From a virus, in the IMG/VR virus record IMGVR_UViG_3300004806_000019, positions 20,224-84,223 of that record: 64,000 nucleotides of DNA, one strand, 5' to 3'. A model generated the notes under the pieces. It saw nothing but the letters and a program-made list of their open reading frames with translations. It had not been told where the DNA came from and made no database searches. Below are positions 6,482-51,000 of this stretch, in pieces. The translations under genes and the position numbers were made by a program. Numbering within the stretch: the stretch's first letter is position 1; each line of letters starts with the position of its first letter.

Positions 6482-6482
6482 G

Positions 6483-8865: not shown

Positions 8866-9447
8866 TCACTCCTTAATGACTTCTGGACGAGGCGCAGAAG
8901 CCGGTTGAGGAGGCTCAGAAGCCTTCTTTATGTCGTTATCAAGCTCCTGATAGGCTTTTGAGGCGCGAAAATCATCCCGTGCAGTGTGATCAGACTGAGC
9001 AATTGCTTGCACCAGAGGGGCATTAAGTAAAACCCAAACCCGATAACCACCATTCTCAATGACGATCTTCTGATCCTTAACGATGTATCCGGAAATCGGC
9101 GCATTGATGGCCGTCTCTTTAACTGTCCTCTCAAAGTGAGAAGCAATGACTCTGGCGTCCTCAAGATGATCGGTTGTTTTTAGAGAGAGCTTTCCGGAAA
9201 TCTTTTCGGCAATCTGTCGTCTGGCCTGAAGGGAAGCCTTATCGATGGCCAACTGAAGATCCGAACTGGTAGCCGTTGCCACACCGATCAGCTTCCCGTC
9301 ATCATCAGGTGGGCTTGTGTACCAGCCAGGACTTTCGTCAGCAACCCGGCTGACTTGTTGCTCTATATAAGCAGGAGTCCCCGGCTTCGGGGATGAACAG
9401 GCCGTTAAAGCTATCGCAGAGACTGCGACATAAAGAACGTGTTTCAT
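8866..9447 (-). CDS. LPP20 / FlgP-like lipoprotein
   Basis: 193 residues. The N-terminus is a lipoprotein signal ending in the lipobox LTAC, so Cys17 should be lipidated and the protein anchored in the outer membrane. The body has SPGWYTSPPDDDGKLIGVA, then a long helix with ASLQARRQIAEKISGK, then GYRVWVLLNAPL: the layout of the LPP20 family, to which the flagellar protein FlgP belongs. The C-terminal tail is Pro- and Ala-rich. The start is ATG 9447 because GGAGGG lies four bases upstream; the ATG at 9462 overlaps the previous stop. A role in the envelope or flagellar basal region is inferred from family and neighbours. Confidence 0.82.
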   Translation of the reverse strand: MKHVLYVAVSAIALTACSSPKPGTPAYIEQQVSRVADESPGWYTSPPDDDGKLIGVATATSSDLQLAIDKASLQARRQIAEKISGKLSLKTTDHLEDARVIASHFERTVKETAINAPISGYIVKDQKIVIENGGYRVWVLLNAPLVQAIAQSDHTARDDFRASKAYQELDNDIKKASEPPQPASAPRPEVIKE

Positions 9448-9458
9448 AAAACCCTCCG

Positions 9459-9743
9459 TCATTTAATCCATTCAGTTTGCTGTCTTGCCCACTCAAGAAG
9501 ATCACTTTTGCGGTAACTCACATAGTTCCATCTGAACCGGATGTAAGGTGGGCCTCCCCCCGCATTGTTATTGATGGCCATGTTTGCCAAACGCTTTGTG
9601 GAAATTGGACACCCAATTGATTTCAGAAAGACGGTTGCCGCTTTCCGATTGAGCCATTCATCCCCATCCTCAAGAAGGAGTTTTGACTTCTTCATGTTCT
9701 CCCTAAACTCTTCCTTGAGCTTATCGGTTAAAACGCCAGCCAT
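9459..9743 (-). CDS. Small helix-turn-helix DNA-binding protein, likely operon regulator
   Basis: 94 residues. From about residue 29 the sequence WLNRKAATVFLKSIGCPI, then a glycine loop AGGGPPYIRF and YRKSDLLEWARQQ, follows the small excisionase/AlpA-type HTH pattern (recognition helix, wing, YxxxDLxxW end). It is the first gene of the minus-strand operon, directly downstream of a promoter overlapped by two CCCATTGGAT repeats, so autoregulation is likely but unproven. Its stop overlaps the following reading frame as ATGA. An excisionase role is possible, but no integrase lies in the window. Confidence 0.75.
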   Translation of the reverse strand: MAGVLTDKLKEEFRENMKKSKLLLEDGDEWLNRKAATVFLKSIGCPISTKRLANMAINNNAGGGPPYIRFRWNYVSYRKSDLLEWARQQTEWIK

Positions 9744-19867: not shown

Positions 19868-20668
19868 GTGATCAAGAAACGCAGTCAAGCTGAAATAGAT
19901 TTTGCACTTGAGCTTTATAATGAGCTTGGTAGCGCATACAAAGTTGCCACTCGTATGGGCCTATCAAACAAAGCGGTCTATCGTATGCTTCACGATGCTG
20001 GTGCAGATATTCCTGGTTGGACAGATCCTAAACCGCGAAAACTAAAGTTTGATGGGGATAGCGCGAAAGCAGTAATAGAAGACTATTTATCTGGCATGTC
20101 TTGGGCTGATATGCGGGTAAAATACGGGGCCGCTGACTATGCCATGCGTGAGTGTGTTCGGAGAGCAGGGATAAAACTTCGGGATCATGGCGGTCAGCGC
20201 CGCAGAATTACAGATCAGGAAGAACAAGAAATTGTTGGCTTGCTGAAATCTGGATTAAAGCAGGTTGCGGTATCTGCAAAGTTTGGTTGTCACCAAGGTA
20301 TCGTAAGCAAAATCGCCATTAAGCATGGAGTATCTGACGGTCGAAAAGCGTCTGGTGAAAGACATGGAAGCTGGAAGGGTGGGGTTGTCAAAAATGGCGA
20401 GGGATATGTTTTGGAGAGGATTTATCCAGACGATCCTAATTTCGGCATGGCGGGGCGCAGCGGGTACGTCCCACAGCATCGTTTGGTTATGGCTAGAAGT
20501 TTGAGGCGCAATATTTCGCCATATGAATCTGTCCACCATATCAATGGTGATAGAACAGATAATCGCCTTGAAAACCTTCAGCTTAGATATGGCAAGCATG
20601 GCAAAGGTGTTGTTCTTACCTGTCGCTGTTGCGGCTCTCATGACATAGAGGCATCTAATCTTGACTGA
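19868..20668 (+). CDS. HNH homing-type endonuclease with N-terminal DNA-binding region
   Basis: 266 residues. Residues 1-160 contain repeated helix-turn-helix-like segments (AYKVATRMGLSNKAVYRML; GLKQVAVSAKFGCHQGIVSK). The HNH part follows: GYVPQHRLVMARSL, then VHHINGDRTDNRLENLQL with the His-His and Asn of the ββα-metal fold. The end holds CRCCG. Free-standing HNH enzymes of this type cut DNA at or near their insertion site and spread among phages. GAGGA sits before GTG 19868, and it has its own promoter. Located amid structural genes, it is probably a selfish insertion; a regulatory role cannot be excluded. Confidence 0.87.
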   Translation: MIKKRSQAEIDFALELYNELGSAYKVATRMGLSNKAVYRMLHDAGADIPGWTDPKPRKLKFDGDSAKAVIEDYLSGMSWADMRVKYGAADYAMRECVRRAGIKLRDHGGQRRRITDQEEQEIVGLLKSGLKQVAVSAKFGCHQGIVSKIAIKHGVSDGRKASGERHGSWKGGVVKNGEGYVLERIYPDDPNFGMAGRSGYVPQHRLVMARSLRRNISPYESVHHINGDRTDNRLENLQLRYGKHGKGVVLTCRCCGSHDIEASNLD

Positions 20669-29207: not shown

Positions 29208-29232
29208 TAGCAAACAATATGGGGGTTTGCTA
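29208..29232 (+). promoter_or_regulatory. Hairpin around ribosome site and start codon
   Basis: TAGCAAAC (29208-29215) and GTTTGCTA (29225-29232) form a perfect 8 bp stem around a loop holding GGGG, the Shine-Dalgarno of the next gene. The last base of the stem is the A of ATG 29232, so folding could hide the start. It may time or dampen translation of the adaptor gene. The rest of the gap 29161-29207 shows nothing else. Confidence 0.4.
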
Positions 29233-29891
29233 TGGCTACTAGCGTAACCTACAATACTCTGGTTCAGGACGTTCAGGCATATCTGGAGCGTGGCGCATCC
29301 TCTACGACTGATGCAACGGTTACGGCGCAGATCCCAAGGCTTATCAACGCAGCAGAGCGCAAGCTGGCTCAAATCCTCAAGCTTCTAGGTCAGATTGAGG
29401 TTTTATCTGACGTAACAGGACTCACTCCGGGGAATCCCGTTATTCCAAAGCCTGACAGGTGGCGCCAGACTGTATCTATGAATTATGGGGCAAGCTCGGA
29501 TTCTAACTTTAGAACGCCCTTGTTTCCTAGAAGCTATGAATATTGCAGAACATATTGGCCGGATGACTCCCTGACTTCTCCGCCAAAGTTTTACGCTGAC
29601 TATGGGTATACATCGTGGCTTATCGTCCCGACGCCTGATGTCACCTACCCCTTGGAGATCACTTGCTATATGCAGCCTCCTTTGTTGGATGCGAATAACC
29701 AATCTAACTTTTGGACGATATATTGCCCGAATGCTCTCCTTTATGGGACACTGGTTGAGGCAATGCCCTTCCTGAAGAATGATGAACGTATTCCTGTTTG
29801 GGAAAATATGTATAAGGCGGAGATCGCCACATTAAGCGGTCAGGATCTGCAACGGCAAATGGACCGGGCATCAGAGCGGAGGACCGTCTAA
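29232..29891 (+). CDS. Tail tubular protein A / adaptor-like protein
   Basis: 219 residues. It shows the helical start of T7 gp11-type adaptors: YNTLVQDVQAYLERGASSTT, IPRLINAAERKLAQIL. A beta section with LFPRSYEYCRTYWP and YADYGYTSWLIVPTPD follows, then helices NALLYGTLVEAMPFLK and a basic end. Such proteins form a ring between portal/gp4 adaptor and tail nozzle. Together with the gp4-like and nozzle proteins it supports a short-tailed particle. The end overlaps nothing; the next gene starts at 29892. Confidence 0.72.
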   Translation: MATSVTYNTLVQDVQAYLERGASSTTDATVTAQIPRLINAAERKLAQILKLLGQIEVLSDVTGLTPGNPVIPKPDRWRQTVSMNYGASSDSNFRTPLFPRSYEYCRTYWPDDSLTSPPKFYADYGYTSWLIVPTPDVTYPLEITCYMQPPLLDANNQSNFWTIYCPNALLYGTLVEAMPFLKNDERIPVWENMYKAEIATLSGQDLQRQMDRASERRTV

Positions 29892-30785: not shown

Positions 30786-31172
30786 ATGAGTGATCGTCAG
30801 ATAGGTCTGAATGTAGTCTTAGGACAACCGATAGCCAGCGTTGGCGTCAACGGTGTCGGCTACCTGAGCATTCCCCAGAACTCTCAGAACGCCGGTTATA
30901 CCTGTGTCCTTGGTGACGCGGGGTATCACATCTATATGGCGACGGCGGGGACATTCACGATCCCGTCAAACGCGAGTGTGGCCTATCCGATTGGAACGGT
31001 GATTGCCTTCGTTAACCTGTCAGCATCCTCCAGCATCGCCATCACATCCGATACGATGTACCTGATGGGGTCTGGGTCTACCGGTACACGTACTCTAGCC
31101 CAATACGGCTGTGCGACGGCGCTAAAGACCGGCACAACCACATGGATCATCTCTGGTACAGGGTTAACTTGA
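30786..31172 (+). CDS. Small beta-type virion protein
   Basis: 128 residues. It contains NAGYTCVLGDAGYHIYMATA and AYPIGTVIAFVNLSASSSIA, a pattern frequent in small phage decoration or baseplate-associated proteins. AAAGGTAA precedes ATG 30786. It ends directly before the RCC1-repeat gene, with which it is probably co-expressed and perhaps assembled. Confidence 0.6.
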   Translation: MSDRQIGLNVVLGQPIASVGVNGVGYLSIPQNSQNAGYTCVLGDAGYHIYMATAGTFTIPSNASVAYPIGTVIAFVNLSASSSIAITSDTMYLMGSGSTGTRTLAQYGCATALKTGTTTWIISGTGLT

Positions 31173-31173
31173 T

Positions 31174-34100
31174 ATGTCAGGGGTAACTTCCGCATTACTC
31201 TGGGGCGGCAAAGCACCGGCAGCAGTGGGTCTGTTGGCGTGGGGGAATAATTCTTATGGTCAGCTAGGTCTTGGGAATACGACTTATTATTCAAGTCCTA
31301 AACAAGTTGGAGCGTTAACAAACTGGTCTAGCATTGTTGGTGGCGCCTATCATGGTGTTTCTATAAAGTCTGATGGCACTCTATGGGCGTGGGGATTAAA
31401 TCAATATGGTCAATTAGGTTTAGGAAATAGAACTTATTATTCCTCTCCAAAGCAAATCGGCGCTTTAACGAATTGGTCAAAAGTTGCTTGTGGCGGAAGG
31501 TTTACGACGGCCATTAAAACTGACGGAACCCTATGGACTTGGGGGTTTAATAATAATGGTCAACTTGGTTTAGGAAATAGAACTTATTATTCTTCTCCAA
31601 AGCAAATCGGAGCTTTAACTAATTGGTTAAAAGTCGCTTGTGGGTACTATCACACAATAGCGATAAAAACAGACGGAACACTATGGACTTGGGGACTAAA
31701 TCAATATGGTCAGTTAGGTTTAGGAAATATCACGAATTATTCTTCTCCGAAACAAGTTGGATTATTAACAAACTGGTCCAGTTGCGCTGGAGGGCAATCT
31801 CATACAATTGCCATTAAAACAGATGGGACTCTATGGACTTGGGGGTGGAACATTTTTGGTCAATTAGGGCTTGGAAACATTACGAATTATTCTTCTCCGA
31901 AACAAGTCGGCTTATTAACAAACTGGTCCAGTTGCGCTGGAGGGCATTATCATATAGTGGCAATTAAAACAGACGGCACCTTGTGGTCCTGGGGAAGAAA
32001 CAATTTTGGTCAATTAGGGCTTGGAAACATTACGAATTATTCTTCTCCGAAACAAGTCGGCTTATTAACAAACTGGTCTAGTTGCTCTGGAGGGCAATAT
32101 CATACAGTTGCCATTAAAACAGATGGGACTCTATGGACTTGGGGGTGGAACATTTTTGGTCAGCTTGGTTTAGGAAATATAACTTATTATTCCTCTCCAA
32201 AACAAGTTGGATCTCTTACTTCATGGGTAAAAGTCGCTTGTGGTTTTAACCAAACCCTCGCCATAGGCCGCCCCGTCCCCGTTGGCCTGATGTCGTGGGG
32301 GTATAATGGTTCTGGGCAGTTAGGTTTAGGAAATACGACTTATTATTCCAGTCCTAAAGCTGTGGGACAGTTGACGAACTGGTCAAAAATAGCAACAGGT
32401 AATACTTTTGTAGCTATAAAAACTGATGGGACACTTTGGGTTGGGGGATGGAATAATAATGGTCAATTAGGGCTTGGAAACATCACTTATTATTCTTCGC
32501 CTAAACAGGTTGGGGCATTGACTAACTGGTCTAGTGTGGCTTGCGGTCAATCCTCTACGGCAGCAATTAAAACTGACGGCACCTTGTGGTCCTGGGGAGG
32601 GAATCAATACGGTCAACTTGGTCTTGGAAATACCACAAGCTATTCAAGCCCCAAACAGGTAGGTGGTCTAACTAACTGGTTGGCTCTCGCTTGTGGTGAA
32701 TACTTTGCTATTGCCACCAAGACTGATGGCACATTATGGGCGTGGGGGCAGAATAATAGCGGTCAGTTAGGTCTTGGGAACAGAACCCATTATTCTTCTC
32801 CTAAACAAATAGGCGCTTTAACAAATTGGTTAAGTGTTGCCTGTGGGAACTATTACGTTTTATCAATTAAGACTGATGGATCTCTATGGGCTTGGGGTCA
32901 AAATAACTATGGTCAATTAGGGCTTGGAAATCAGACTTATTATTCTAGTCCCAAGCAAGTCGGTGGCCTGACGAATTGGTTAAAAGCTGTCCCTGGTGGT
33001 GGATACTTTGCTATTGCCACCAAGACTGATGGAACTTTATGGGCTTGGGGAAACAACCGATACGGCTCGTTAGGTCTTGGGAACATTACGAATTATTCTT
33101 CTCCAAAGCAAATCGGAGCTTTAACTAATTGGTTAAAAGTCGCTTGTGGGAGCTATCACGTTTTATCAATTAAGACTGATGGATCTCTATGGGCTTGGGG
33201 ATTAAATAATTATGGTCAATTAGGGCTTGGAAACATTACGAATTACTCCTCCCCCAAGCAAGTCGGCTCCCTCACCACATGGCAGAACGTCGCCTGCGGG
33301 CATTTTTCTGTCCTCGCCACGATAGTCCCCGTATCGCCGGGGCTGGCGGCTTGGGGGCAGAATAATTATGGTCAGCTAGGTCTTGGGAATCGGACTTATT
33401 ACTCTTCGCCTAAACAGGTTGGAGCGTTAACTAACTGGTCTAGCATTGCTGGCGGCATCTCTCATGTTGTTTCTATAAAGTCTGATGGAACCTTGTGGGC
33501 GTGGGGGGCTAATAACAATGGTCAGCTAGGTCTTGGGAATCGGACTTATTATTCAAGTCCTAAACAAGTTGGCGTTTTAACGAATTGGTCAAAAGTCGCT
33601 TGTGGGTACCTTAGCACAATGGCGATAAAAACTGACGGAACCTTGTGGGCATGGGGTCAAAATGCCCTTGGACAATTAGGGCTTGGGACCATTACGAATT
33701 ATTCTTCTCCAAAGCAAATCGGAGCTTTAACTAATTGGTTAAAAGTCGCTTGTGGGTACTATCACACAATAGCGATAAAAACAGACGGCACTTTATGGAC
33801 TTGGGGGTATAACTACTATGGTCAGTTAGGTTTAGGAAATATAACTTATTATTCCTCTCCGAAACAAGTCGGCTTATTAACAAACTGGTCCAGTTGCGCT
33901 GGATGGCAGTATTTTACAGTTGCCACCAAAACAGATGGCACTTTATGGACTTGGGGTCAAAATGCCTATGGTCAATTAGGGCTCGGAAACATTACGAATT
34001 ATTCTTCTCCAAAGCAGGTTGGAGCGTTAACTAACTGGTCTAGCATTGCTGGCGGCATCTCTCATGTTGTTTCTATAAAGTCTGATGGAACCTTGTGGTC

Positions 34101-34395
34101 CTGGGGGTATAATAACTTAGGTCAGTTAGGTTTAGGGAATCGGACTTATTATTCAAGTCCTAAACAAGTTGGCGTTTTAACGAATTGGTCAAGCGTTGCT
34201 TGTGGCGGAAGGTTTACGACGACCATTAAAACTGACGGAACCTTGTGGGCATGGGGTCAAAATGCCTATGGTCAATTAGGGCTCGGAAACATTACGAATT
34301 ATTCTTCTCCAAAGCAAATCGGAGCTTTAACTAATTGGTTAAAAGTCGCTTGTGGTGGATATACTACCATCGCCACCTTTGGGGTAATGACGTAA
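31174..34395 (+). CDS. RCC1-repeat protein: three tandem seven-bladed propellers
   Basis: 1,073 residues made of 21 repeats of about 50 residues, each with GQLGLGN, YYSSPKQVG and IKTDGTLWxWG. Breaks with different sequence (GRPVPVGLMSWG near residue 364; VPVSPGLAAWGQNN near 716) divide them into three groups of exactly seven, the blade number of the RCC1 beta-propeller. RCC1 folds bind proteins, DNA or sugars; here a receptor-binding or tail surface role is likely from its place in the tail module. Repeats are 150 bp long and nearly identical at DNA level. The start has no strong Shine-Dalgarno. No signal peptide. Confidence 0.88.
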   Translation: MSGVTSALLWGGKAPAAVGLLAWGNNSYGQLGLGNTTYYSSPKQVGALTNWSSIVGGAYHGVSIKSDGTLWAWGLNQYGQLGLGNRTYYSSPKQIGALTNWSKVACGGRFTTAIKTDGTLWTWGFNNNGQLGLGNRTYYSSPKQIGALTNWLKVACGYYHTIAIKTDGTLWTWGLNQYGQLGLGNITNYSSPKQVGLLTNWSSCAGGQSHTIAIKTDGTLWTWGWNIFGQLGLGNITNYSSPKQVGLLTNWSSCAGGHYHIVAIKTDGTLWSWGRNNFGQLGLGNITNYSSPKQVGLLTNWSSCSGGQYHTVAIKTDGTLWTWGWNIFGQLGLGNITYYSSPKQVGSLTSWVKVACGFNQTLAIGRPVPVGLMSWGYNGSGQLGLGNTTYYSSPKAVGQLTNWSKIATGNTFVAIKTDGTLWVGGWNNNGQLGLGNITYYSSPKQVGALTNWSSVACGQSSTAAIKTDGTLWSWGGNQYGQLGLGNTTSYSSPKQVGGLTNWLALACGEYFAIATKTDGTLWAWGQNNSGQLGLGNRTHYSSPKQIGALTNWLSVACGNYYVLSIKTDGSLWAWGQNNYGQLGLGNQTYYSSPKQVGGLTNWLKAVPGGGYFAIATKTDGTLWAWGNNRYGSLGLGNITNYSSPKQIGALTNWLKVACGSYHVLSIKTDGSLWAWGLNNYGQLGLGNITNYSSPKQVGSLTTWQNVACGHFSVLATIVPVSPGLAAWGQNNYGQLGLGNRTYYSSPKQVGALTNWSSIAGGISHVVSIKSDGTLWAWGANNNGQLGLGNRTYYSSPKQVGVLTNWSKVACGYLSTMAIKTDGTLWAWGQNALGQLGLGTITNYSSPKQIGALTNWLKVACGYYHTIAIKTDGTLWTWGYNYYGQLGLGNITYYSSPKQVGLLTNWSSCAGWQYFTVATKTDGTLWTWGQNAYGQLGLGNITNYSSPKQVGALTNWSSIAGGISHVVSIKSDGTLWSWGYNNLGQLGLGNRTYYSSPKQVGVLTNWSSVACGGRFTTTIKTDGTLWAWGQNAYGQLGLGNITNYSSPKQIGALTNWLKVACGGYTTIATFGVMT
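31216..34380 (+). repeat. Tandem 150 bp repeats in three blocks of seven
   Basis: DNA repeats coding the RCC1 blades; successive GGTCAR(T/C)TAGG blocks begin 150 bases apart (for example 31258, 31408, 31558). Blocks are 31216-32262, 32281-33321 and 33340-34392 approximately. Identity between distant units can be perfect: 33415-33498 equals 34015-34098, exactly four units apart. Linkers between blocks are G/C-rich in third positions, unlike the AT-leaning repeats. The pattern points to ongoing gene conversion or unequal exchange. Confidence 0.85.
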
Positions 34396-34413: not shown

Positions 34414-36189
34414 ATGAACAAGACACTGCATTTCCTTAGTGGTATCCCCAGAAGTGGGAGCACTGTGTTAGCCGCCATTCTTAATCAAAACCCGCTAACC
34501 CATGTCTCTACCACCTCTGGCCTAGTACACGCCTTGGATGGGCTTGCGAATACGTGGCACTCAGGTCCACTTCTTGTAGACAAAGACCCGGATCATAAGC
34601 AGCTTTGCGCGGCTATGCGGGGCGTGATTGACAATTTCTACACCGATACCGACAAGCCCGTCATTATCGACAAGTCAAGAGGGTGGCCGATACCGATTAT
34701 TATGGGGGCGATGACGCAAGTGCTTGGGAGAAAGCCTCGTATCATTGCAACGGTCAGGTCGATCCCAGATTGCGCGGCGTCTTTCATTCGGGTTGCTAAA
34801 CCCCAAGATCTGGACAAGTTCATCGCTGACGGTCAGTTGATGGAGCATCTGAAGGCGGCTTACATCTCTCTGCAAGAGGGCTGGCAGGCTGCACCAGAGA
34901 ACTTCCTGATTGTTGAATATGAAGACCTGTTGGCTGATCCGAAAGAGGTCTTGAACAGGGTCCATGCTTTCCTTGGGCTTCCTGACTTCACCTATGACTT
35001 TGAGAATATCGACGGGGAGCCTGTTAAGGAAGACGACGAGAACCTTCACGGCTATGCTGGGATGCACGACATTAAGCCGAAGCTGGAACACCAGCATAAG
35101 CAGCATCCGAGAGATGTCCTGAAGGAGCATTATGGGAGCTTCTGCCAGCCTGAGTTCTGGTTGGATAAGCCCAGGACGATCCCTGACATCTCTGATCTTG
35201 ACCTCCAGCTTGTGGCGTCACGGACAGGGGACTTTGAAGAGGGTTGGCGTCTGGCGCAGAAGATGGAACGGGAGATCCCGAATAACCATCGTGCGGCTTT
35301 CAACCGTGGCTGGTATGCGCTTCGACAGGGCAAGATCCAAGAGGGCTATAAGCTGATGGAGCGCGGCAGATATGTACAAGTCTTTGGAGATCCGCCACCG
35401 GATGCGCCAACGAAGCCTTGGGACGGTCTGGCGAAGGGCATTGTGCTATTGAACCTTGAGCATGGGCTAGGTGATCAGATCCACCAGATCCGCTTTGCCA
35501 AGCATATTGCCAAACGGGCTGGTCGGTGCGTTGTGTCTTGCGCGGGTCAATTGGCGTCCTTGTTTGTGGATGTTGAGGGGGTTTCTGCTGTCGTCCAGAA
35601 AGAGGCCAACTTCGGTATCTACCATGACTTCTACGTCCAGGGGATGAGTGCAATCCTGCCGCTTGGGTTTGAACTGCCTGACATTACGGGTGAGGCTTAT
35701 ATCAGGAAGCCGAATGTCATTCGTGGCAAGAAGTTCCGCATTGGCCTGCGCTGGCTTGGTTCCACTCGCTTTGAGCCGGATCATGTGAAGAGGTTCCCCC
35801 ATGAACTGCTGTTCAATGCGGTCAAGGACATTCCTGACGTTGAGTTCGTAAGCCTCCAGAGGGATGAGGGTGCCGAGCATCGCCCCTATTGGTGCCGTGA
35901 GGTTCCGCTTCAGTCTTGGGAGGATACGCGCAATGCTGTCGCCTCCTGTGACTTGGTGATTTCGTCCTGCACCTCTATCTCTCACTTGTCAGCAGCGATG
36001 GGCGTTGAGACTTGGGTTATCACGCCAATCATGCCATACCACTTATATGCGCTTGATGGCGAGAAGACTCCTTACTATGACCATATGCGCCTGTTCAGGC
36101 AGGAAGTGTTTGGGGAGTGGGAGCATCCCTTCATCAACATAAACAAACGACTGATGGAACGGTTCAGTTCCAAGATGGCAGCGGAATAG
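34414..36189 (+). CDS. Sulfotransferase-TPR-GT9-like fusion protein
   Basis: 591 residues. N-terminal sulfotransferase: P-loop-like 5'-phosphosulfate motif SGIPRSGSTVLAAIL (residues 9-23) and the 3'-phosphate motif TVRSIPDCAASFIR (about 112-125), then FLIVEYEDLLADP. Residues about 265-310 are TPR-like (AAFNRGWYALRQGKIQEGY). The last 240 resemble the GT9-like domain of the 413-residue protein in the minus-strand operon: LEHGLGDQIHQIRFAKHI, GLRWLGSTRF, SCDLVISSCTSISHLSAAMG. It could sulfate, and perhaps glycosylate, a virion protein or host surface glycan. A strong AAGGAG precedes the ATG. Placed between the RCC1 and fibre genes. Confidence 0.85.
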   Translation: MNKTLHFLSGIPRSGSTVLAAILNQNPLTHVSTTSGLVHALDGLANTWHSGPLLVDKDPDHKQLCAAMRGVIDNFYTDTDKPVIIDKSRGWPIPIIMGAMTQVLGRKPRIIATVRSIPDCAASFIRVAKPQDLDKFIADGQLMEHLKAAYISLQEGWQAAPENFLIVEYEDLLADPKEVLNRVHAFLGLPDFTYDFENIDGEPVKEDDENLHGYAGMHDIKPKLEHQHKQHPRDVLKEHYGSFCQPEFWLDKPRTIPDISDLDLQLVASRTGDFEEGWRLAQKMEREIPNNHRAAFNRGWYALRQGKIQEGYKLMERGRYVQVFGDPPPDAPTKPWDGLAKGIVLLNLEHGLGDQIHQIRFAKHIAKRAGRCVVSCAGQLASLFVDVEGVSAVVQKEANFGIYHDFYVQGMSAILPLGFELPDITGEAYIRKPNVIRGKKFRIGLRWLGSTRFEPDHVKRFPHELLFNAVKDIPDVEFVSLQRDEGAEHRPYWCREVPLQSWEDTRNAVASCDLVISSCTSISHLSAAMGVETWVITPIMPYHLYALDGEKTPYYDHMRLFRQEVFGEWEHPFININKRLMERFSSKMAAE

Positions 36190-36198
36190 GAGAAGAAA

Positions 36199-36768
36199 AT
36201 GGGTTTGTGGGTTCAGGTTCAAAACAACCAAGTGACGGCTTGCATCGACACGCCTCCGGTCACGACGAACGATCCGAATTGGAAACCGGCTATTGAGATC
36301 AAGCCAGCTTTGAAGCCCTATGTTGAGTATTACGGGCAGGCTGTTTTTGATACGACGCAGAACCCGGTTACGATCACCTATCCGGTTCTTGAGTGGGATT
36401 CAACGACGGCTGCAAGGAATGAGGCTGACGCGAAAGCACAGGAAGCGAAGCAGGCTTATGCGTCTGCTATTGCGAATGGTCTGATTATTACGTCTGCTTC
36501 GACGCCTGCGATCAATGGGACTTACGCTCTTGAAGATAGCGATATTGCTAACCTCAATGCAGAGGCAAGCTTCATCAGCAATTTCCAAGAGTTCACGACG
36601 ATGAACACGAACGCCCTGCCGTGGATCACCATGACGGGCGTTGTGACCTTCCCGTCCCTGCCGTCGTTCATGTCGGTTGCTAAGGCTGTGGCTCAGTACG
36701 TCTCTGCCTGCAAGCTGGCGGCGAATGGCATTGGGACGTTCCCGGCTAACACGGTACAAGTGCCGTGA
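36199..36768 (+). CDS. Fibre-associated protein with DUF4376-like C-terminus
   Basis: 189 residues. The N-terminal 60 (WVQVQNNQVTACIDTPP) resemble phage fibre accessory proteins, and the rest carries a helix ADAKAQEAKQAYASAIANG followed by LIITSASTPAINGTYALEDS, the layout of DUF4376-like domains found in phage tail fibre/assembly genes. AGGAGAAG precedes the start. Likely a small fibre part or fibre chaperone. Confidence 0.65.
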   Translation: MGLWVQVQNNQVTACIDTPPVTTNDPNWKPAIEIKPALKPYVEYYGQAVFDTTQNPVTITYPVLEWDSTTAARNEADAKAQEAKQAYASAIANGLIITSASTPAINGTYALEDSDIANLNAEASFISNFQEFTTMNTNALPWITMTGVVTFPSLPSFMSVAKAVAQYVSACKLAANGIGTFPANTVQVP

Positions 36769-36922: not shown

Positions 36923-38515
36923 ATGAAGCTTGGAAAACTGCCTGCCGTTGTTGATCCGAAAGTCCCGGTATTTTCCAGAGCTTGCACTCCTCCTGTCCCT
37001 CCGGTAACGGCTGATTGGTGTTCAAAGGTCGCAGACTGGCCTTTGGATAAGAATGACACGGTGGGGGACTGCACGATTGCGGCGGCTCAACACTTGATCC
37101 AGGCATGGACGACTTATGCCGGGAACCCGGTGATAGTGTCTGAGGCTGACGTGTTAGCAGCGTATTCTGCGATCTCTGGATATAACGGGACGCCTGCGAC
37201 GGACGTTGGGTGTGTTGAGTTATCGGTTCTGAAATATTGGCAGGCGACGGGGATTGGGGGCCATAAGATTAACTCGTTTGCGGCTCTTAACATTGCCAAC
37301 CTGAATGAGATCAAGGCTGCGATTAATTGGTTCGGGGGAATTTATATCGGGGTGAGGTTGCCGATTTCGGCACAGACGCAACCGGCTGTCTGGGATGTCG
37401 TTCCGGGTTCAACGGGGATACCTGGATCGTGGGGAGGACATGCTGTTTGTGTCCAGTCTTATGATGCGACAGGCATAACCGTCATCTCGTGGGGCAAGAC
37501 GATCAAGATGACGTGGGCTTTCTGGCTGGCCTATGTTGACGAGGCGTATGCGGTTGTTTCGACGGATTTCTTGAATGCACAGGGTGTTGATCCGCAAGGG
37601 TTGACGCTGGCTAACCTCATCGCTGACGAGGCTCTCCTTGCTGCTAACGTGTCAGGACCGAGTGATGCCCTGGTGACGTTTATCAATGCGGCGACTGCGC
37701 CTTCAAGTGGCGTGGGTGCTTTATTGGCTCCTAACCTTCTTCTGACTGCCGCGCCTGAGATGGCTCTTGGCGGGATTAACTTCCCTATCTTGGCGGGTGG
37801 GACTCAGGTTGATGGCGTGACGGCGGTTCAGGCTGGGACGAGGTATGCGCTTGGGTTGCTGTCCACTCCCTATATGTGCAGCGGATATCTTGGGTACATG
37901 TCAGGATGGAGCGGCGGTCAGGCGACGATAGCTTATGGGAACAACCAGTTTGCGAGTCAGGTGTTTGCGCCTGACTTTACGACGACGGTTCTTGCTAATA
38001 GCGCGGGTGGTCTGGTGATCGTTGGTACGTCTATAGTTGGCGTGATGATCACGACAAGTTCGGCTTATATCTTTAGCTCTGCCGACATTGACCAGATAGA
38101 GAGTTTCATCACGACCCTGACGGGGGCGGCTCCTGCGATAGTCAGGTTATATGGCGGGATCTTAGGGCGTTACCCGACGATAGCTGAGAACCAGTGGTAC
38201 ACGAAGAACCTGTATCTTCCTGCCTATAACGCGTCACCAGGATCTGCGTTGCATGTGCTGGGAAACAATCTTGGTATTCTTTACTGCTTTACGCACTCGC
38301 CAGAGTTCATGGGTGGGAGTAGTGGTTATGGCAAAGACCCAGTAGCCTATGTGACATATTTGTACCAGAATGCCTTGGGGCGCTCTCCTTCTACTAGTGA
38401 GCTTACTTGGTATGTGGCACAATTAAAAAGCCGTGATCTCTGGGATGTTGTCGCACTGAACATCACTCAGAGCGATGAGGCCAGAGCTTACAACGGTGTT
38501 TGGAATCAGCAATAA
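36923..38515 (+). CDS. Papain-like cysteine peptidase with two C-terminal DUF4214-like domains
   Basis: 530 residues. The N-terminal 210 show a papain-like layout: DTVGDCTIAAAQHL with catalytic Cys50, WGGHAVCVQSYD with His near 173, then ISWGKTIKMTW. A middle region of unclear fold (about 225-400) includes GLVIVGTSIVGVM. Two DUF4214-like units end the protein: VRLYGGILGRYPTIAENQWY, and YVTYLYQNALGRSPSTSELT. DUF4214 is known from secreted and surface-layer proteins. Possible roles are virion protein processing, cutting host surface peptides, or cell-wall attack. No signal peptide. Confidence 0.78.
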   Translation: MKLGKLPAVVDPKVPVFSRACTPPVPPVTADWCSKVADWPLDKNDTVGDCTIAAAQHLIQAWTTYAGNPVIVSEADVLAAYSAISGYNGTPATDVGCVELSVLKYWQATGIGGHKINSFAALNIANLNEIKAAINWFGGIYIGVRLPISAQTQPAVWDVVPGSTGIPGSWGGHAVCVQSYDATGITVISWGKTIKMTWAFWLAYVDEAYAVVSTDFLNAQGVDPQGLTLANLIADEALLAANVSGPSDALVTFINAATAPSSGVGALLAPNLLLTAAPEMALGGINFPILAGGTQVDGVTAVQAGTRYALGLLSTPYMCSGYLGYMSGWSGGQATIAYGNNQFASQVFAPDFTTTVLANSAGGLVIVGTSIVGVMITTSSAYIFSSADIDQIESFITTLTGAAPAIVRLYGGILGRYPTIAENQWYTKNLYLPAYNASPGSALHVLGNNLGILYCFTHSPEFMGGSSGYGKDPVAYVTYLYQNALGRSPSTSELTWYVAQLKSRDLWDVVALNITQSDEARAYNGVWNQQ

Positions 38516-39003: not shown

Positions 39004-39366
39004 ATGAGCATGATCAATTTAATCCCCTGGCAGCATGGAGTTCTATGGACATTAACGTTGTTCTGCCTCTTTGTTCATTCACAGGTTGTAATTGTTGGGG
39101 CGATTATTGCGTATAAGGCAATAGAGAATAAGGCCGCACGAGCAGCCAGAGATACAATTTATATATCTTGTCTCTCTTTGTTATTTGTTGCATTGCAAGC
39201 AGACTGGATTATCGAGGGGTATACTGTTACAAAGATAAAGGCTATTTCCGATATCGGGTGGCGTCTTTTCGATTGTGGTGTCGGTGTTGCTTTATTGAGG
39301 CATATGAATGTCAGACGATGCTTCGCATGTGCATACTGGGGGAAAGGACGCTCGAATGACTGTTAA
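39004..39366 (+). CDS. Small membrane protein, about three transmembrane segments
   Basis: 120 residues with hydrophobic segments near 8-35 (VLWTLTLFCLFVHSQVVIVG), 52-68 (ISCLSLLFVALQADWII) and weakly near 85-98. GGGGGATG precedes ATG 39004. Could be a holin or a membrane anchor for the next, periplasmic-facing protein; not decidable from sequence. Confidence 0.6.
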   Translation: MSMINLIPWQHGVLWTLTLFCLFVHSQVVIVGAIIAYKAIENKAARAARDTIYISCLSLLFVALQADWIIEGYTVTKIKAISDIGWRLFDCGVGVALLRHMNVRRCFACAYWGKGRSNDC

Positions 39367-40063
39367 AGCTGTCGTTGCTGCTGTCTTTGTCTCGATTGGT
39401 CTTGGTTCTTTTATTGTCTGGCTTGATGTCATACGACCTATGAGACTAGTTACACAGATTCACCCTCCTTATCAGACGCTGAGTGGAAACCGTGTTGGAG
39501 GCTCTCTTACTGAGATTGTGCTTTGTGCCGCAACGAAGGTCGGCCATCCATTCACATTAGAATGGGGTCCGTGGGCTGAGATGCAGGATAGAGTTTATAA
39601 CAGTAAAGCAGACGCTTTCTTTGGGGCATTCAGGACAACGTGGCGGGACAGTTTTGCGACGGCCTCAAACCCTATTCTTCCTGCGCGGATCGTGAAGATC
39701 GTTGCTAATCACCTCCCTCATTACCCTCCTATCATTGGCGTCAAGATGGGTGCGGGAGTAAGTTCTCAAGCGATAACATCTGGGGCTGTTGCGATACGCC
39801 ACGAGTTCATGGACAATTATGAGATCGTTGATGCTTTGCTTGATGATACGATTGATTTTGCATTCTTGGATATCGTGATCTTAAATGAGATCCTGATGGA
39901 GAAGAGGCTTCCCCTGGACACCTTTAAGACAAGCTACATATACGATGAAAGCTATTCGGTGTATTTTTCCAATAAGTTTCTGGAAACCCATCCAGGGTTT
40001 TTGAGTTCATTTAATAAATCTTTGATAGAATGTAATCCTGCGTCTCAGGAGAGAGTTAAATGA
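39356..40063 (+). CDS. Membrane-anchored solute-binding-protein (family 3)-like protein
   Basis: 235 residues from ATG 39356, preceded by AAAGGA; the longer frame from 39308 overlaps the previous gene. An N-terminal hydrophobic segment (AVVAAVFVSIGLGSFIVWL) acts as signal or anchor. The rest follows the periplasmic binding protein family 3 outline: HPPYQTLSGNRVGGSLTEIV, VYNSKADAFFGAFRTTWR, then DDTIDFAFLDIVILNEIL. Transport genes are absent, so it may sense or sequester a ligand, or act on envelope. Truncation of the family's usual C-terminal lobe is slight. An unusual phage gene. Confidence 0.7.
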   Translation: MTVKAVVAAVFVSIGLGSFIVWLDVIRPMRLVTQIHPPYQTLSGNRVGGSLTEIVLCAATKVGHPFTLEWGPWAEMQDRVYNSKADAFFGAFRTTWRDSFATASNPILPARIVKIVANHLPHYPPIIGVKMGAGVSSQAITSGAVAIRHEFMDNYEIVDALLDDTIDFAFLDIVILNEILMEKRLPLDTFKTSYIYDESYSVYFSNKFLETHPGFLSSFNKSLIECNPASQERVK

Positions 40064-40076
40064 ATGGTATTGTGAA

Positions 40077-41651
40077 GTGACAGCCATACCTATCGATATA
40101 AGCTTTGCTCCTGGTGTATCCAGAGACACCACATTATTTGATACGCAAACTGCGCTTGATGTGTTGTGGTGCAGATTCCGTAATGGTCGCCCTCGTAAGA
40201 TGGGTGGATATCAACGTATTACGGATAATCTTTCAGGCGTCCCTAGGCGCATCCATATTTTCTATCAAGGTTCTCAGGCAATCATTCACATCGGAACGAC
40301 AGCGGGGTTGCAGCAGGTCGTTATCGATTACAATGGTAACTTCATAAGTTCTGCGGATAGAACCCCTGTATCAGGGTTTACGCCTAGCGCGAATATCGGG
40401 TGGACCTTAGACTCGATCTTCGATACCAATACTGGCGTCGTGAACCTTATAGCTCACGCTACCGCTGATTCAAACGCTCCGTATAATCTGACCCAGACCG
40501 TTCCATTTATCGGGCAGATTACGCTGACTACTGTTCTGGTGAAGTTTTCAGATCCGGGGTCTTACGGTGGTGGGGCGTGGACTCAGCCTGATGTTGCTGG
40601 GGGTATCGTTTGTGTTCAGCCTTATGTCTTTGATTATGATGCTGCGGGATTGGTTGGGTGGAGCGCCCCAAACATCCCTCTCTATTTAGGGATAACCGGG
40701 GGAAGTTCTGGTGCTGGTCAAGCAAGGATTTCTTCTCAGAAGATTATGGCTGGCGCTCCTTTGCGAGGGGGTGGTGTTCAACAGCCATCGGTATTGTTCT
40801 GGAGTTTGTCCGAAGTTATAACCGGGACATTCGTTGGAAGTAATGCGGGTTATTTCGCTTTCTCCACGATTTCAAACTCATCATCGATCATCTCGACAAA
40901 GGCCAATATTGAATATGACGGACTGCATTACTGGTGCGGGATCGACAGGTTTCTGGTTTACAACGGAACCGCTCAAGAAGTGGCAAATCCTCATAACCAG
41001 GATTGGTTTTTCAATAATCTCAATTGGACTTATGCGGGTAAAGTCCAGGCTTTTAAAGTTCCTCGTTATGGAGAGATCTGGTGGTTAGCTCCGTTATTCG
41101 GGGCGACTGAATGCTCTCATGCGATTATCTACAATGTAAGAGAGGGAACTTGGTATGACACCGAGCTTCCCGATGGGGGGCGTTCCTGTGGTGCTTTTGC
41201 CCAAGGATTAAGATATCCGATTATGGGTGGCACGGCTCAGAACGCAAATGGATATAAGTTATGGCTGCATGAATCCGGTACGGATGAGGTCGATGGTAAT
41301 GTGACTAATCCTGTACGGTCTTACTTTGAAACGCCATATATGGGTGGACCTAGGCAGCAACAACCAAACGATAAGGGGTTGTCTTATCAGCAGTTAGAGC
41401 CTGATTTCATCCAAACTGGAGATATGACGGTTTCTATTGTTGGTACGGCGAATGCCAGAAGCCCTGTGTCGAATGGAACGGCTGTTCCTTTGAAGGCTGT
41501 CCCCGGAGTACCACAAGAGCAATTGGTTTCGTTTAAAGAAGGACATCGGTTAGGAAGCCTTCATATTGAATCAAATGTGTTAGGTGGGAGCTACATCTGT
41601 GGGAAAAACCTCCTTCATGTAGAGCCAGCGGAAGCAAGGATTGTATCGTGA
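40077..41651 (+). CDS. Tail nozzle / P22 gp10-like DNA stabilisation protein
   Basis: 524 residues. The start, PIDISFAPGVSRDTTLFD followed by WCRFRNGRPRKMGGY, is typical of gp10-like nozzle proteins of podoviruses, which close the head after packaging. The remainder is a beta-propeller-like repetition with YDGLHYWCGIDRFLVYNG and YNVREGTWYDTELPDGG. The start is GTG 40077; no strong ribosome site is seen, so it may be coupled. A gp4-like adaptor upstream and the small gene after it complete the usual set. Confidence 0.8.
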   Translation: MTAIPIDISFAPGVSRDTTLFDTQTALDVLWCRFRNGRPRKMGGYQRITDNLSGVPRRIHIFYQGSQAIIHIGTTAGLQQVVIDYNGNFISSADRTPVSGFTPSANIGWTLDSIFDTNTGVVNLIAHATADSNAPYNLTQTVPFIGQITLTTVLVKFSDPGSYGGGAWTQPDVAGGIVCVQPYVFDYDAAGLVGWSAPNIPLYLGITGGSSGAGQARISSQKIMAGAPLRGGGVQQPSVLFWSLSEVITGTFVGSNAGYFAFSTISNSSSIISTKANIEYDGLHYWCGIDRFLVYNGTAQEVANPHNQDWFFNNLNWTYAGKVQAFKVPRYGEIWWLAPLFGATECSHAIIYNVREGTWYDTELPDGGRSCGAFAQGLRYPIMGGTAQNANGYKLWLHESGTDEVDGNVTNPVRSYFETPYMGGPRQQQPNDKGLSYQQLEPDFIQTGDMTVSIVGTANARSPVSNGTAVPLKAVPGVPQEQLVSFKEGHRLGSLHIESNVLGGSYICGKNLLHVEPAEARIVS

Positions 41652-46970: not shown

Positions 46971-48098
46971 ATGGTTGGGATGTTAAACGCAATTGCTGGC
47001 AGATATCATTATGATGAAGGCGGCTCTACTGGAGATGACGACCAGCAGAGAGGTCCACTCTCCACTTATGACCCGTCTGTTCTTGGCAATATGCAGAATG
47101 CAGTCCTAGGGGGAACACCTGAATCTGCCTTGCAGAAATATAAGGATGCCCAATCAGCACAGGAAGCAGCGGCCCAAGCAAAGAAGGATCGTATCCAACA
47201 GGCAATGGATACACTGAGTGCAAATCGCTCCAATCTCCCGATGATGGCTTTTGGCGCAGGGATGATGAAGCCAACCCACACTGGCACGTTTGGCGAAACA
47301 CTTAGTAATGCAATGAGCGATACAATCCCCGCCATTGATAAGCAGCGTCAATATGAGGCGCAGCTTCAGCAGATGGGGGTTTCAGCGGCTGACGTTGATC
47401 TGGCCCAGAAGACTAAAGCGGCCCAAGATTGGACAGACCGGATGAAGCTTGGGTTGACTACGGCAGAAACAAACCAGAGATTGCAGCAAAGTGATCAGCA
47501 ACATCAGGATTCGCTTAATCTTCAGAGGCAGCAGCTTCAAGGACAAAAAGGATATTATGATTATTTGAAGCAAGAAGACCCTGACGAAGTTTCCTCATGG
47601 GTGCCATTGTATGAAAAACCGGGCGTTCAAAAGATGGACCCTGTAAGTGGCTTGCCGTTATATCAAGGCATGAGCAAAACAGAGAAGCCCGTCGGTCAGC
47701 CTCGGATTGTTAGAAGTGATGATTTGGATAGCAGCAATACAAGTTCCCGTGCAGATCCGATTATTTCGCAGTATAATTCGGCTCAGAAGGCGCTTGATGC
47801 TGCTATTAGCAAAAGGTACGTTATATTAGGATCAAATCCTAAAGCCGATACGAAAATGTTAGATGAGCAAATCGCTCGTCAAAGAGAGCTTGTTGAACAA
47901 TTGAGAGTTGCGGCTACGACAAGGTTGGGAGGCTCAACCACAACGCAGCCTGTATCGCCGGATCCCTTAGCGGCAGGATTAGGGGGAAACGGAAGTGTTC
48001 CTTCTAAGAAGCCAAACATTGATCCTGGCATATATTCTCCTTCTCAAGAAGCAGCTAGGTCTGGAGCATTTCCCGCCCCACAGCCAGGAATTGATTGA
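46971..48098 (+). CDS. Helical internal virion-type protein
   Basis: 375 residues from ATG 46971, six bases after GAGGGA; the longer frame from 46914 overlaps the previous gene. It contains YHYDEGGSTGDDDQ near the start, a segment GAGMMKPTHTGTFGETLSNA typical of phage internal proteins, and a long Gln-rich coiled coil (about 140-200). The end is Pro/Gly-rich. It stops on the start codon of the giant protein (TGATG), so the two are made together. Confidence 0.65.
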   Translation: MVGMLNAIAGRYHYDEGGSTGDDDQQRGPLSTYDPSVLGNMQNAVLGGTPESALQKYKDAQSAQEAAAQAKKDRIQQAMDTLSANRSNLPMMAFGAGMMKPTHTGTFGETLSNAMSDTIPAIDKQRQYEAQLQQMGVSAADVDLAQKTKAAQDWTDRMKLGLTTAETNQRLQQSDQQHQDSLNLQRQQLQGQKGYYDYLKQEDPDEVSSWVPLYEKPGVQKMDPVSGLPLYQGMSKTEKPVGQPRIVRSDDLDSSNTSSRADPIISQYNSAQKALDAAISKRYVILGSNPKADTKMLDEQIARQRELVEQLRVAATTRLGGSTTTQPVSPDPLAAGLGGNGSVPSKKPNIDPGIYSPSQEAARSGAFPAPQPGID

Positions 48099-51000
48099 TG
48101 CCTGAAGATCGCGCAGATGCTCCCCTACCGGAATCAGTGGACATTTCGGAGGCTACTCCTGCACCTGTTATAAACTATGTTAATTACACTCCCGCCCCGA
48201 CTCAGGCGCCAATAAAATCATCATTGCCTCCTTTGACACCGCGTCCAACAGAAAAGCCAGCACAAGGTCTTCCGTTAGACGTTGTTAAGCAGAAAGTGGC
48301 AAAGTTAAAAGATGCCGGTTATTCGCAGGATGAGATTGCTGAATCTCTTATGAAGAATCCTTTTTTCGGCCCTCGTATATCTGAGGCGGCTGATAAAGGA
48401 TGGGAATATCCAGAAATTTTTTCGAGATTTGGCCTCGATGGATATGATCCAACGGAAGGTGGTCCGTTAAAGACTCCATGGCGATATGTCAAAGCAGGCG
48501 TTGAATCTGCTGGGGAAATGATTGGAAACACTCTCCAGGGCGGAGCTATCGCTTCAGACCGAAGATCTTTATATGCTCCATATTATGAGGACTACACCTC
48601 GTTTAAGAGCAAGTCTCCTGAAGAGCAGCAGCAGATTCTTAGTAAGATCGCTAATAGTGATATGGACTTGGAGGCCAGACAGAATCTTACAAAAGAGTTC
48701 CGCAGGCTTCAAGAGGGGGCAAATCCTAGACAATTTGACATGCTGGCAAATCAGCCAGTTGAACAATTGCCTGGATACAAAGTTGGACAATGGTTCAAAG
48801 ACACCACACAGGGACTGCTTAATCCTGAAGAGGAAAAGCTAACTGGCGTTAGGATTGCTAAAGCTGCTGCCCCTATCGTTCCTGCTATGGCTGCAACAGC
48901 ACTTGCCGGTCCTGCTGGCCCAATGGCTCTGTTTGGCGGGTCTTCTTATCAAGAGGGTTATGAGAAGGCAAAAAAGGTTGGCGCCTCAGAAGAAGCTGCC
49001 CGTGACGCTGCTATGAAAGAAGCCGGTATTGGTGCTGCCGCTGGTGTTCTGGATGTTGGAGCCATATTAGGCCCAATAGCAAAATACTCTCCTGAACTCC
49101 TTAATAGGGCGCAAGCAATCCTTTATAAAGGTATTCAAAGCGGTGTCATTGGAAGTTCAGTCGGAGAAGCTCAAAAGTGGCTGAATGCTCAGATTGAACG
49201 CACAACTTATGATCCAAATGCACAATATAAATTTGATCCGACAGAAGCTGCGATTGGATTTGCAGGGATGGCAATTCCAGGTGCAGTTCATGGGGCATTC
49301 CATGAGCAAGCCCCAAAAGAAACCGCTCCGACAGGAACAGATATTCCTCATCCATCATTGATTGCCCATGCTTATTGGAGGATTGATGAGCTTGAGTCTA
49401 TCTACAATGGAACAGAGGGAAACCCTCCAAGGGATCTAACTCCTGCTGAAGCTGCCGAATACGCATTTCTTCAGAAGAACAAAAATAAGCCCGAAGAGCT
49501 TTCTAAAGTGATTCGTGGGACTGAGCCTTCTGAGCAACCGGAGCCGACTCAAGCGCCAACAGTTACGCCAGCCCCAACTGTTTCTAAATCTAATAAGCCT
49601 CCGAAAGCGACAAAGGCTCCTGTGCAGGCTGAGATACAAGCTCAACCTGAAGCGCAAGTTCAACCGGAAACACAGGATAAGGTTCAAGAGGCTGCTAACG
49701 CCCTTGTCGAAGAGGCAAAGCAGAATCCTACGGTTACAACACCTGAAAAAGATAGTGATATCTCCGCTCAAATTAAGGAGATGATCAACCCAAACAACCC
49801 GAGAGATTCTGTCTACATTGCTCCAGGGAATGAGCATGAAATCCCTGTCAGTGCTTTAGATCATCCAGGTGTTGAGCTTGCTGAAAATCCCGTTAGTAAG
49901 GCTTTGTTGCTAACGACCAATATGGACAAAGCCATAGATTTTCAGAAGAACAGAGATCTCACAGAAGAAGAGAAAGCCAATTTGCTGGGTCTTTCTCAAC
50001 CCAAAACTGAGGCGTTAAAAGATCCTAATGCTGTCGTCGTTCAAGGGAAGAATGAGGATGGCGCTATTGTTCATCAGGAGCTTACCTCACAGGATAACCT
50101 GCCTAACTCTGTAGAGAACACAGCGAATAGGACTCCTGAAACTGGTCAAGTTGAAGTCGCCAGCACAACAGGAGCGCAAGCCCATAGAGTTGGTGGTGAT
50201 GATCAAGCTGTTCCTGTGGCAAAAGGAAAGGTTCCGACTCCCGATCCTGAGATACAGATTGCTGAGATCCGTAAGCAGATTGAATCATTTGAAGAACATC
50301 GGGATCAAGCTCTTGAAGTTGGGGATACTCCTACGGCTCAGAATTGGCATAACCGTATAAGGGAGGCTAATGAACAAATAGCCGAGCTTCAAAGAGGTCA
50401 ACCGTTAGAAAAAGAGCCAGCAGTTCAAGAGAGTGAACCCGCTTCTCCGCAGGCTCCGTCAACCGATATTCCTTGGGAAAATCATTATCAACGAGCAGTT
50501 GATGTCGTTGGGAGCGAGAGTTTCCCGCTTAAAAGCAAACCACTTGCAGATAAGCTTGGGGTTGATGAGGCTATGGCAACAAGGCTTTTACAAGCCATGG
50601 CGTCCAGGGGAGCTATTAGGCAAACAAAGAATGGTGGGTTTTCACGAAATCCAGATAGAGGCCCGTTAGACTTTCTTACATTCTTGGCAGCAAAGGGAGG
50701 TCTTCGGGATGATGAAGGCCATCTTCTTGCTCAAAGTATGGACGCTCAGAGGATGGTTCCGAATTACGGACCTTTAATCCGTAAGAATGGAATGGGGATT
50801 GATCAGGCAGGGGAAGCTTTGTGGCAGGCCGGATATTTTGGCCCGACTGATTCTACGCCAAGGCCAACAGAGACAGAAGTATTAAACAAGCTAAGTGAAG
50901 CCCTGAATGGGAGACTTCCTCTTGAAGAGCGGTATTCTGAATATGACCGAGATCGGGTGCAAAAGATTCAGGACACCAAGACCGCTAAAGATCGGGAGAA

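What the first reader, a model, noticed from the sequence alone, without database searches (positions are those of the whole stretch)
31174..34395. A 1,073-residue protein of 21 RCC1 repeats grouped as exactly three times seven
RCC1 repeats fold into seven-bladed propellers. Here two non-repeat linkers near residues 364 and 716 split the repeats 7+7+7, so the protein should be three propellers in a row. Such an architecture in a phage tail module suggests a multivalent receptor- or sugar-binding fibre tip, or an effector mimicking eukaryotic RCC1.
Basis: partly seen in the sequence, partly recalled or inferred. Interest (0 to 1): 0.76.

Follow-up and report, generated by a model that had tools for sequence, protein, structure and literature searches.

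The report
Phage protein with three RCC1 propellers
A bacterial virus carries, in its tail-fibre gene region, a protein made of three ring-shaped seven-bladed domains, one of a large family of such viral proteins whose outer face changes very fast, which suggests that it helps the virus stick to its host.

Summary
ORF 31174-34395 encodes 1,073 aa with 21 RCC1 repeats, split 7+7+7 by two short linkers. Seven is the real unit. Among related viral genes, 130 of 136 single-propeller-sized ORFs have exactly seven repeats, and fused ones run 14, 21, 28, 35, 42. The AlphaFold2 model of the third unit (pLDDT about 96) is a closed seven-bladed propeller that matches UVR8, RCC1 and BLIP-II. Units 1 and 2 were modelled poorly.

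The gene sits in the tail-fibre slot of a phage whose capsid protein is 77% identical to Caulobacter phages. Relatives keep a conserved N-terminal leader. Their propellers are only 52-72% identical in most pairs where the adjacent sulfotransferase is 96-99.5% identical. Variation falls on one face, arises by mosaic recombination between repeats, and involves no reverse transcriptase in the record.

Published virion proteomes contain RCC1-like proteins (phAPEC6, GAP32). PollyC-type phages fuse an RCC1 propeller to a tail-fibre N-terminus.

Best reading: a multivalent, hypervariable host-surface-binding virion protein, in a cassette with a sulfotransferase/probable glycosyltransferase. The eukaryotic-RCC1-mimic idea is not supported. 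Presence in the particle and the ligand are untested.

The parts
31174..34395 (+). Gene of the triple RCC1-propeller protein (1,073 aa, 21 repeats)
31234..32265 (+). Propeller 1, repeats 1-7 (aa 21-364)
   Evidence: low-confidence model
32266..32289 (+). Linker 1, GRPVPVGL (aa 365-372)
32290..33321 (+). Propeller 2, repeats 8-14 (aa 373-716)
   Evidence: low-confidence model
33322..33345 (+). Linker 2, IVPVSPGL (aa 717-724)
33346..34392 (+). Propeller 3, repeats 15-21 (aa 725-1073); pLDDT about 96, 28 strands, closed seven-bladed fold
34414..36189 (+). Partner enzyme: sulfotransferase domain (aa 1-250, PAPS-loop SGIPRSGST) plus C-terminal half, probably TPR/glycosyltransferase
   Evidence: Pfam PF13469/PF00685; conserved beside RCC1 genes in dozens of viruses; alignment
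36199..36768 (+). Small DUF4376 protein at the 3' end of the cassette, kept in relatives
30786..31172 (+). 128-aa protein directly upstream; matches the C-terminus of a PHROG 'minor tail protein'
   Evidence: phrog_8780 E 6e-8; a 433-aa protein with a similar stretch precedes a 14-repeat gene in L106
29892..30761 (+). 289-aa protein whose N-terminal 144 aa match the N-terminus of the Caulobacter phage GB2A tail fibre
   Evidence: 35% identity, E 5e-24, composition-adjusted
29232..29891 (+). SU10-type adaptor protein, left border of the fibre slot
   Evidence: PF24175 E 1e-25; 51% to GB2A gp069c
40077..41651 (+). Virion structural protein, right border of the fibre slot
   Evidence: phrog_3287; 40% to Caulobacter phages

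Best explanation
The protein is three closed seven-bladed RCC1 propellers in one chain, carried in the tail-fibre slot of a tailed phage probably related to Caulobacter phages. It most likely sits on the virion as a multivalent adhesin. One face of each propeller (the A-B loops WGxNxxG and the C-D turns GxxxxxA) would form a variable binding surface for host-surface molecules, and the other face and the core are constant. Diversity comes from recombination and gene conversion among the many near-identical half-blades and between phages, not from a retroelement. The neighbouring sulfotransferase/probable glycosyltransferase is a constant part of the cassette and most likely modifies the propellers or nearby fibre proteins; this last step is inference.
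For: Seven as unit: relatives have 7, 14, 21, 28, 35, 42 repeats. Fold: unit 3 superposes on HERC2 RLD2 (Z 54, 1.5 A over 350 aa), UVR8 and RCC1, and over about 260 aa on BLIP-II. Slot: adaptor, fibre N-terminus and structural protein in the same order as Caulobacter phage GB2A and contigs L155/L156/L159, which have no RCC1 there. RBP-like evolution: neighbour enzyme 96-99.5% identical while propellers are 52-72% in most pairs; leaders 76-97% against propellers 55-77% in the diverged pairs tested. Variable positions 5, 7, 8 and 38-42 have entropy above 3 bits and fall in A-B and C-D connections, i.e. one face, by the strand order. Mosaic: exact tracts up to 91 nt between repeats. Cultured precedents: PollyC and SeaP3 proteins with fibre-type N-terminus plus RCC1; RCC1 genes near fibre genes in S-SRM01 and BUCT-ZZ01; RCC1-like proteins in virion mass spectrometry of phAPEC6 (PMC7247149) and GAP32 (PMC5259590).
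Against: No proteome of this phage. The protein lacks the leader seen in single-propeller relatives, so how it would attach is unknown. It is very basic (net +41, pI 9.5), which fits nucleic-acid binding as well as anionic glycans. Propellers 1 and 2 were not confidently modelled. No ligand evidence. A cassette with modifying enzymes could also make a decoration rather than the receptor binder.
Confidence: 0.68

Rival explanations
1. Virion decoration or carrier: the propellers coat the particle, are glycosylated or sulfated, and give loose adhesion (to slime, particles or mucus) or shielding, rather than specific receptor recognition.
For: Constant sulfotransferase/probable glycosyltransferase partner; N-x-S/T sequon in 95% of window repeats and 28% of enzyme-linked viral repeats against 4-5% elsewhere; a GT41 family protein is also in the window.
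Against: Tail-fibre slot; variation concentrated at loop positions of one face looks like selected recognition; the sequon trend may only reflect shared ancestry.
Confidence: 0.15
2. DNA-condensing inner-head protein, as suggested for the phAPEC6 RCC1-like proteins.
For: Published suggestion (PMC7247149); high positive charge of this protein; PHROGs files RCC1 families under DNA metabolism.
Against: Median net charge of 169 viral relatives is only +0.4 per repeat and many are acidic; tail-fibre neighbourhood; fusion to fibre N-termini in PollyC-type phages; DNA binding does not predict a hypervariable face.
Confidence: 0.08
3. Intracellular effector or regulator acting in the host, e.g. mimicking eukaryotic RCC1 or titrating a host protein as BLIP-II does.
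For: Same fold as RCC1 and as the inhibitor BLIP-II.
Against: Capsid relatives infect bacteria, which lack Ran; structural-gene position; conserved leaders with hypervariable propellers in relatives.
Confidence: 0.05

Closest known systems
RCC1-repeat propellers UVR8, HERC2 RLD2, RCC1 (PF00415/PF25390)
   Same: Repeat sequence and seven-bladed fold
   Different: Those are cellular proteins of other function; here three propellers in one viral chain with near-identical 50-aa repeats
Pseudomonas phages PollyC, SeaP3 (and Littlefix by structure match) tail-fibre proteins with RCC1 propeller
   Same: RCC1 propeller in a tail fibre gene of a cultured phage
   Different: One propeller covalently fused to a T7-like fibre N-terminus; here three propellers without such a domain
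phAPEC6, GAP32, PBECO4, 121Q RCC1-like 'DNA condensation' proteins
   Same: RCC1-type proteins in phages, found in virions by mass spectrometry for phAPEC6 and GAP32 (PMC7247149, PMC5259590); multi-gene clusters in most
   Different: Distant in sequence, separate genes (30-42 kDa in phAPEC6), assigned to DNA packing without a test
Cyanophages S-SRM01 and BUCT-ZZ01 RCC1 genes
   Same: Seven- and 14-repeat genes near tail fibre genes and a sulfotransferase or a relative of the partner's C-terminal half
   Different: T4-like cyanophage backbone; enzymes on separate genes
BLIP-II
   Same: Compact RCC1-like propeller that binds a protein very tightly (PDB titles)
   Different: Single bacterial propeller acting as an enzyme inhibitor
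DGR-diversified phage receptor-binding proteins
   Same: Conserved scaffold with hypervariable binding residues
   Different: No reverse transcriptase in this record; synonymous sites change too, so variation is by recombination

Membership tests
RCC1-repeat seven-bladed propellers | RCC1 repeats above the curated cut-off | tested here: met
   21 stretches, PF00415 853.7 bits against 21.7 cut-off
RCC1-repeat seven-bladed propellers | Closed seven-bladed fold, propeller 3 | tested here: met
   pLDDT about 96, 28 strands; Z 54 to HERC2 RLD2
RCC1-repeat seven-bladed propellers | Closed seven-bladed fold, propellers 1 and 2 | tested here: inconclusive
   pLDDT mostly 25-85 because alignment rows fell on propeller 3; repeat counts support it
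Eukaryotic RCC1 (Ran exchange factor) | Ran/nucleosome interaction and exchange activity | not testable with these tools
   Fold only; a bacterial host has no Ran
Phage tail fibre / receptor-binding proteins | Position in the fibre slot of the structural genes | tested here: met
   Order matches GB2A and L155/L156/L159
Phage tail fibre / receptor-binding proteins | Conserved N-terminus with variable distal part, in relatives | tested here: met
Phage tail fibre / receptor-binding proteins | Recognisable N-terminal virion-attachment domain in this protein | tested here: not met
   Only a 20-aa leader; relatives' motif absent. So it is not filed as a fibre proper
Phage tail fibre / receptor-binding proteins | Presence in the virion and receptor binding | not testable with these tools
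   Needs proteomics and adsorption assays
DGR target proteins | Reverse transcriptase in the same genome | tested here: not met
   No PF00078 match in the 84,223-base record, which may be a fragment
Sulfotransferases (partner gene) | PAPS-binding loop and 3'-phosphate R...S motif | tested here: met
   SGIPRSGST in the window protein, with R13-S14-G15-S16-T17 invariant in 24 sequences, and invariant R115 and S123; PF13469

The most novel reading that the evidence does not exclude
Phages run a retroelement-free diversification system: tandem arrays of interchangeable RCC1 half-blades, packaged in closed sevens (one to six or more propellers per chain), are shuffled by recombination to make new binding faces, which a constant sulfotransferase/glycosyltransferase of the same cassette then modifies chemically (its sulfotransferase domain is nearest in the PDB to protein-tyrosine sulfotransferases, and the faces are tyrosine-rich with N-x-T sequons).
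Probability: 0.3. Interest if true: 0.85.

Novelty: new variant of a known kind. Interest (0 to 1): 0.6.

Why it matters
Phage RCC1 proteins are filed as DNA-metabolism or chromosome-condensation proteins. The evidence here points instead to a widespread, fast-evolving class of propeller adhesins, organised mostly in multiples of seven blades and linked to a sulfotransferase cassette. If true it gives a second route, besides retroelements, by which phages vary a binding surface on a fixed scaffold, and a natural source of repeat-protein binders.

Tried and rejected
Diversity-generating retroelement: rejected, no reverse transcriptase in the record, and among relatives many synonymous codons change along with the amino-acid changes. 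Defence system: no PADLOC hit. Structure of the partner enzyme: AlphaFold2 gave mean pLDDT 57, not used. Pfam side hits of the RCC1 protein (Peptidase_C25_C, Hjc, PlyG CBD) and the NCBIfam TreF hit are partial matches inside the repeats, judged spurious. The relatives' leader found no match in annotated phages. Direct look at phAPEC6 failed: the accession tried from memory was not in the collection. RCC1 hits in papers on RcGTA and algal viruses were locus tags or culture-collection names. Whether the two halves of a repeat share ancestry: weak correlation only (r 0.13, Mantel p 0.08), so shuffling is favoured but the test alone is not decisive. PDB absence of other folds was not used as evidence.

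Full report
Observation. Translation of 31174-34395 gives an uninterrupted 1,073-aa protein. It is built from 21 repeats of 50 aa, and the only two 52-aa spacings fall after repeats 7 and 14. Pfam finds 21 RCC1 stretches, E 4e-264. At the two junctions the KTDGTL turn is replaced by GRPVPVGL and IVPVSPGL, and the protein itself begins ...PAAVGL before repeat 1. Each block of seven therefore carries the same kind of leader, as expected from duplication or fusion of whole propellers (inference). At DNA level propellers 1 and 3 are most alike in register, 75% on average.

Is seven the real unit? In 60-odd viral contigs found through the neighbouring enzyme or the repeats, nearly every RCC1 gene has exactly seven repeats. 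Typically two such genes lie before the enzyme gene and one after it. A wider scan gave 130 of 136 single-propeller-sized ORFs with seven repeats, and fused proteins with 14, 21, 28, 35 and 42. After clustering, 21 of 34 multi-propeller proteins are exact multiples of seven (p 2e-10); several others are one off, perhaps missed repeats. In some fused proteins (e.g. L091, 35 repeats) no linker is visible at most junctions and the count is still a multiple of seven. This is strong support for closure in sevens.

Fold. AlphaFold2 of the full chain gave pLDDT about 96 for residues 721-1069, with 28 strands in order, i.e. seven four-stranded blades. Propellers 1 and 2 had low to middling confidence, because the related sequences aligned to the third unit. 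The third unit matches UVR8 (1.5 A), HERC2 RLD2 (Z 54, 1.5 A over 350 aa), human RCC1 and BLIP-II.

Genome context. The window is part of an 84,223-base virus record; a twin record of 89,399 bases encodes the identical protein. The major capsid protein is 77% identical to Caulobacter phages GB2A, RW, RLK and KcrB, so a bacterial, perhaps alphaproteobacterial, host is likely. In GB2A the order is virion structural protein, tail fibre, virion structural protein. The window has the homologue of the first (51%), then a 289-aa protein matching the N-terminus of the GB2A fibre (35%, E 5e-24), then a 128-aa tail-like protein, the triple propeller, the sulfotransferase protein, a DUF4376 protein and further genes, and then the homologue of the last. 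Contigs L155, L156 and L159 have the same three anchors with a longer fibre and no RCC1 genes. The RCC1 cassette thus occupies the fibre slot. The partner enzyme is 64-73% identical among viruses whose adaptor proteins are mostly only 24-44% identical, which suggests that the cassette moves between phages.

Hypervariability. In most pairs of contigs whose enzyme is 96-99.5% identical, the flanking propeller proteins are only 52-72% identical (e.g. L016/L048 99.5% against 61% and 67%). Some pairs are closer, e.g. L016/L022, and exact duplicates also occur. In the diverged pairs examined, leaders are 76-97% identical and propellers 55-77%. About half of the unchanged amino acids in those propellers still have changed codons, so alleles are replaced rather than point-mutated, and identity jumps between neighbouring repeats (L016/L019: repeats 1-2 at 96%, repeats 3-7 at 62-79%). 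Across 448 unique repeats (mostly viral), positions 5, 7, 8 and 38-42 have more than 3 bits of entropy, while GQLG, SSP, Q, G, LT and W are nearly fixed (position 33 is also variable). By the strand order, positions 5-8 lie in the A-B loop and 38-41 at the C-D turn. In an antiparallel meander these are on the same face. The B-C (VGALTN) and D-A (TDGT) loops of the other face are much more conserved.

Source of diversity. Within the window gene, exact tracts of 91, 84, 75, 68 and 67 nt join repeats in different places (3/17, 15/19, 5/6, 13/21, 13/17), often with diverged flanks, and best partners of the first and second halves of a repeat often differ. Gene conversion or unequal recombination among repeats is the simplest cause. 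No reverse transcriptase is in the record.

The partner enzyme. Residues 1-250 are a sulfotransferase (PF13469) with the PAPS loop and an invariant R...S motif. The best solved relatives are protein-tyrosine sulfotransferases, though with modest E-values of 3e-5. The C-terminal half is related to a BUCT-ZZ01 protein that in turn resembles the window's own TPR/Glyco_transf_9-like protein (without composition correction), so a glycosyltransferase is probable but not shown. N-x-S/T sequons at repeat positions 15-17 occur in 20 of 21 window repeats and 28% of enzyme-linked viral repeats, against 4-5% in other viral and cellular repeats. This is suggestive only, since related sequences are not independent.

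Precedents. PollyC gp38 and the SeaP3 homologue carry a T7-fibre-like N-terminal domain (Pfam just under its cut-off; strong PHROG tail-fibre matches over residues 1-334 for PollyC) followed by an RCC1 propeller. Virion mass spectrometry found several 'DNA condensation' proteins in phAPEC6, which the paper's text describes as RCC1-like (PMC7247149; that each listed protein is an RCC1 protein is my reading of the table), and GAP32 gp001 (PMC5259590). Cyanophages S-SRM01 and BUCT-ZZ01 have seven- and 14-repeat genes near tail fibre genes.

Verdict. Shown: 21 repeats, three sevens, the predicted fold of unit 3, fibre-slot position, hypervariability in relatives, mosaic repeats. Inferred: closure of units 1 and 2, virion location, host binding, modification by the partner enzyme. 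RCC1 proteins in phages are known, and the paper searches made here found none tying them to a sulfotransferase cassette or to blade shuffling (open-licence papers only). I rate it a new variant of a known kind.

Noticed in passing
window 48095-59863 (+): A 3,922-aa protein with Strawberry-notch/ResIII helicase motifs and weak methyltransferase matches.
   Followed up: no
window 5240-8246 (-): Two adjacent TPR proteins with glycosyltransferase matches: GT41 (E 3e-53) and Glyco_transf_9-like; candidates for modifying virion proteins.
   Followed up: partly
window 36923-38515 (+): 530-aa protein with a C-terminal DUF4214 and an N-terminal part matching a PHROG of unknown function; by eye the N-terminal part resembles a cysteine peptidase, not tested.
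   Followed up: no
window 19868-20668 (+): HNH endonuclease among the structural genes.
   Followed up: no
window 8866-9462 (-): LPP20-type lipoprotein match, unusual in a phage.
   Followed up: no
window 39308-40063 (+): 251-aa protein that by eye looks like a periplasmic solute-binding protein; not tested against Pfam.
   Followed up: no
PHROGs phrog_4219, phrog_7220, phrog_16766: RCC1 families filed under DNA, RNA and nucleotide metabolism, although phrog_4219 matches PollyC's fibre-type protein along its whole length; likely a misleading category.
   Followed up: partly
L120, L123-L125, L131, L132, L134: Viral ORFs with 54-73 detected RCC1 repeats in one open frame cut by the locus end: possible eight- to ten-propeller proteins.
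   Followed up: no
L105, L108, L116, L126, L129, L133, L148: A set of strongly acidic viral RCC1 proteins (net -28 to -83), some with repeat counts that are not multiples of seven.
   Followed up: no
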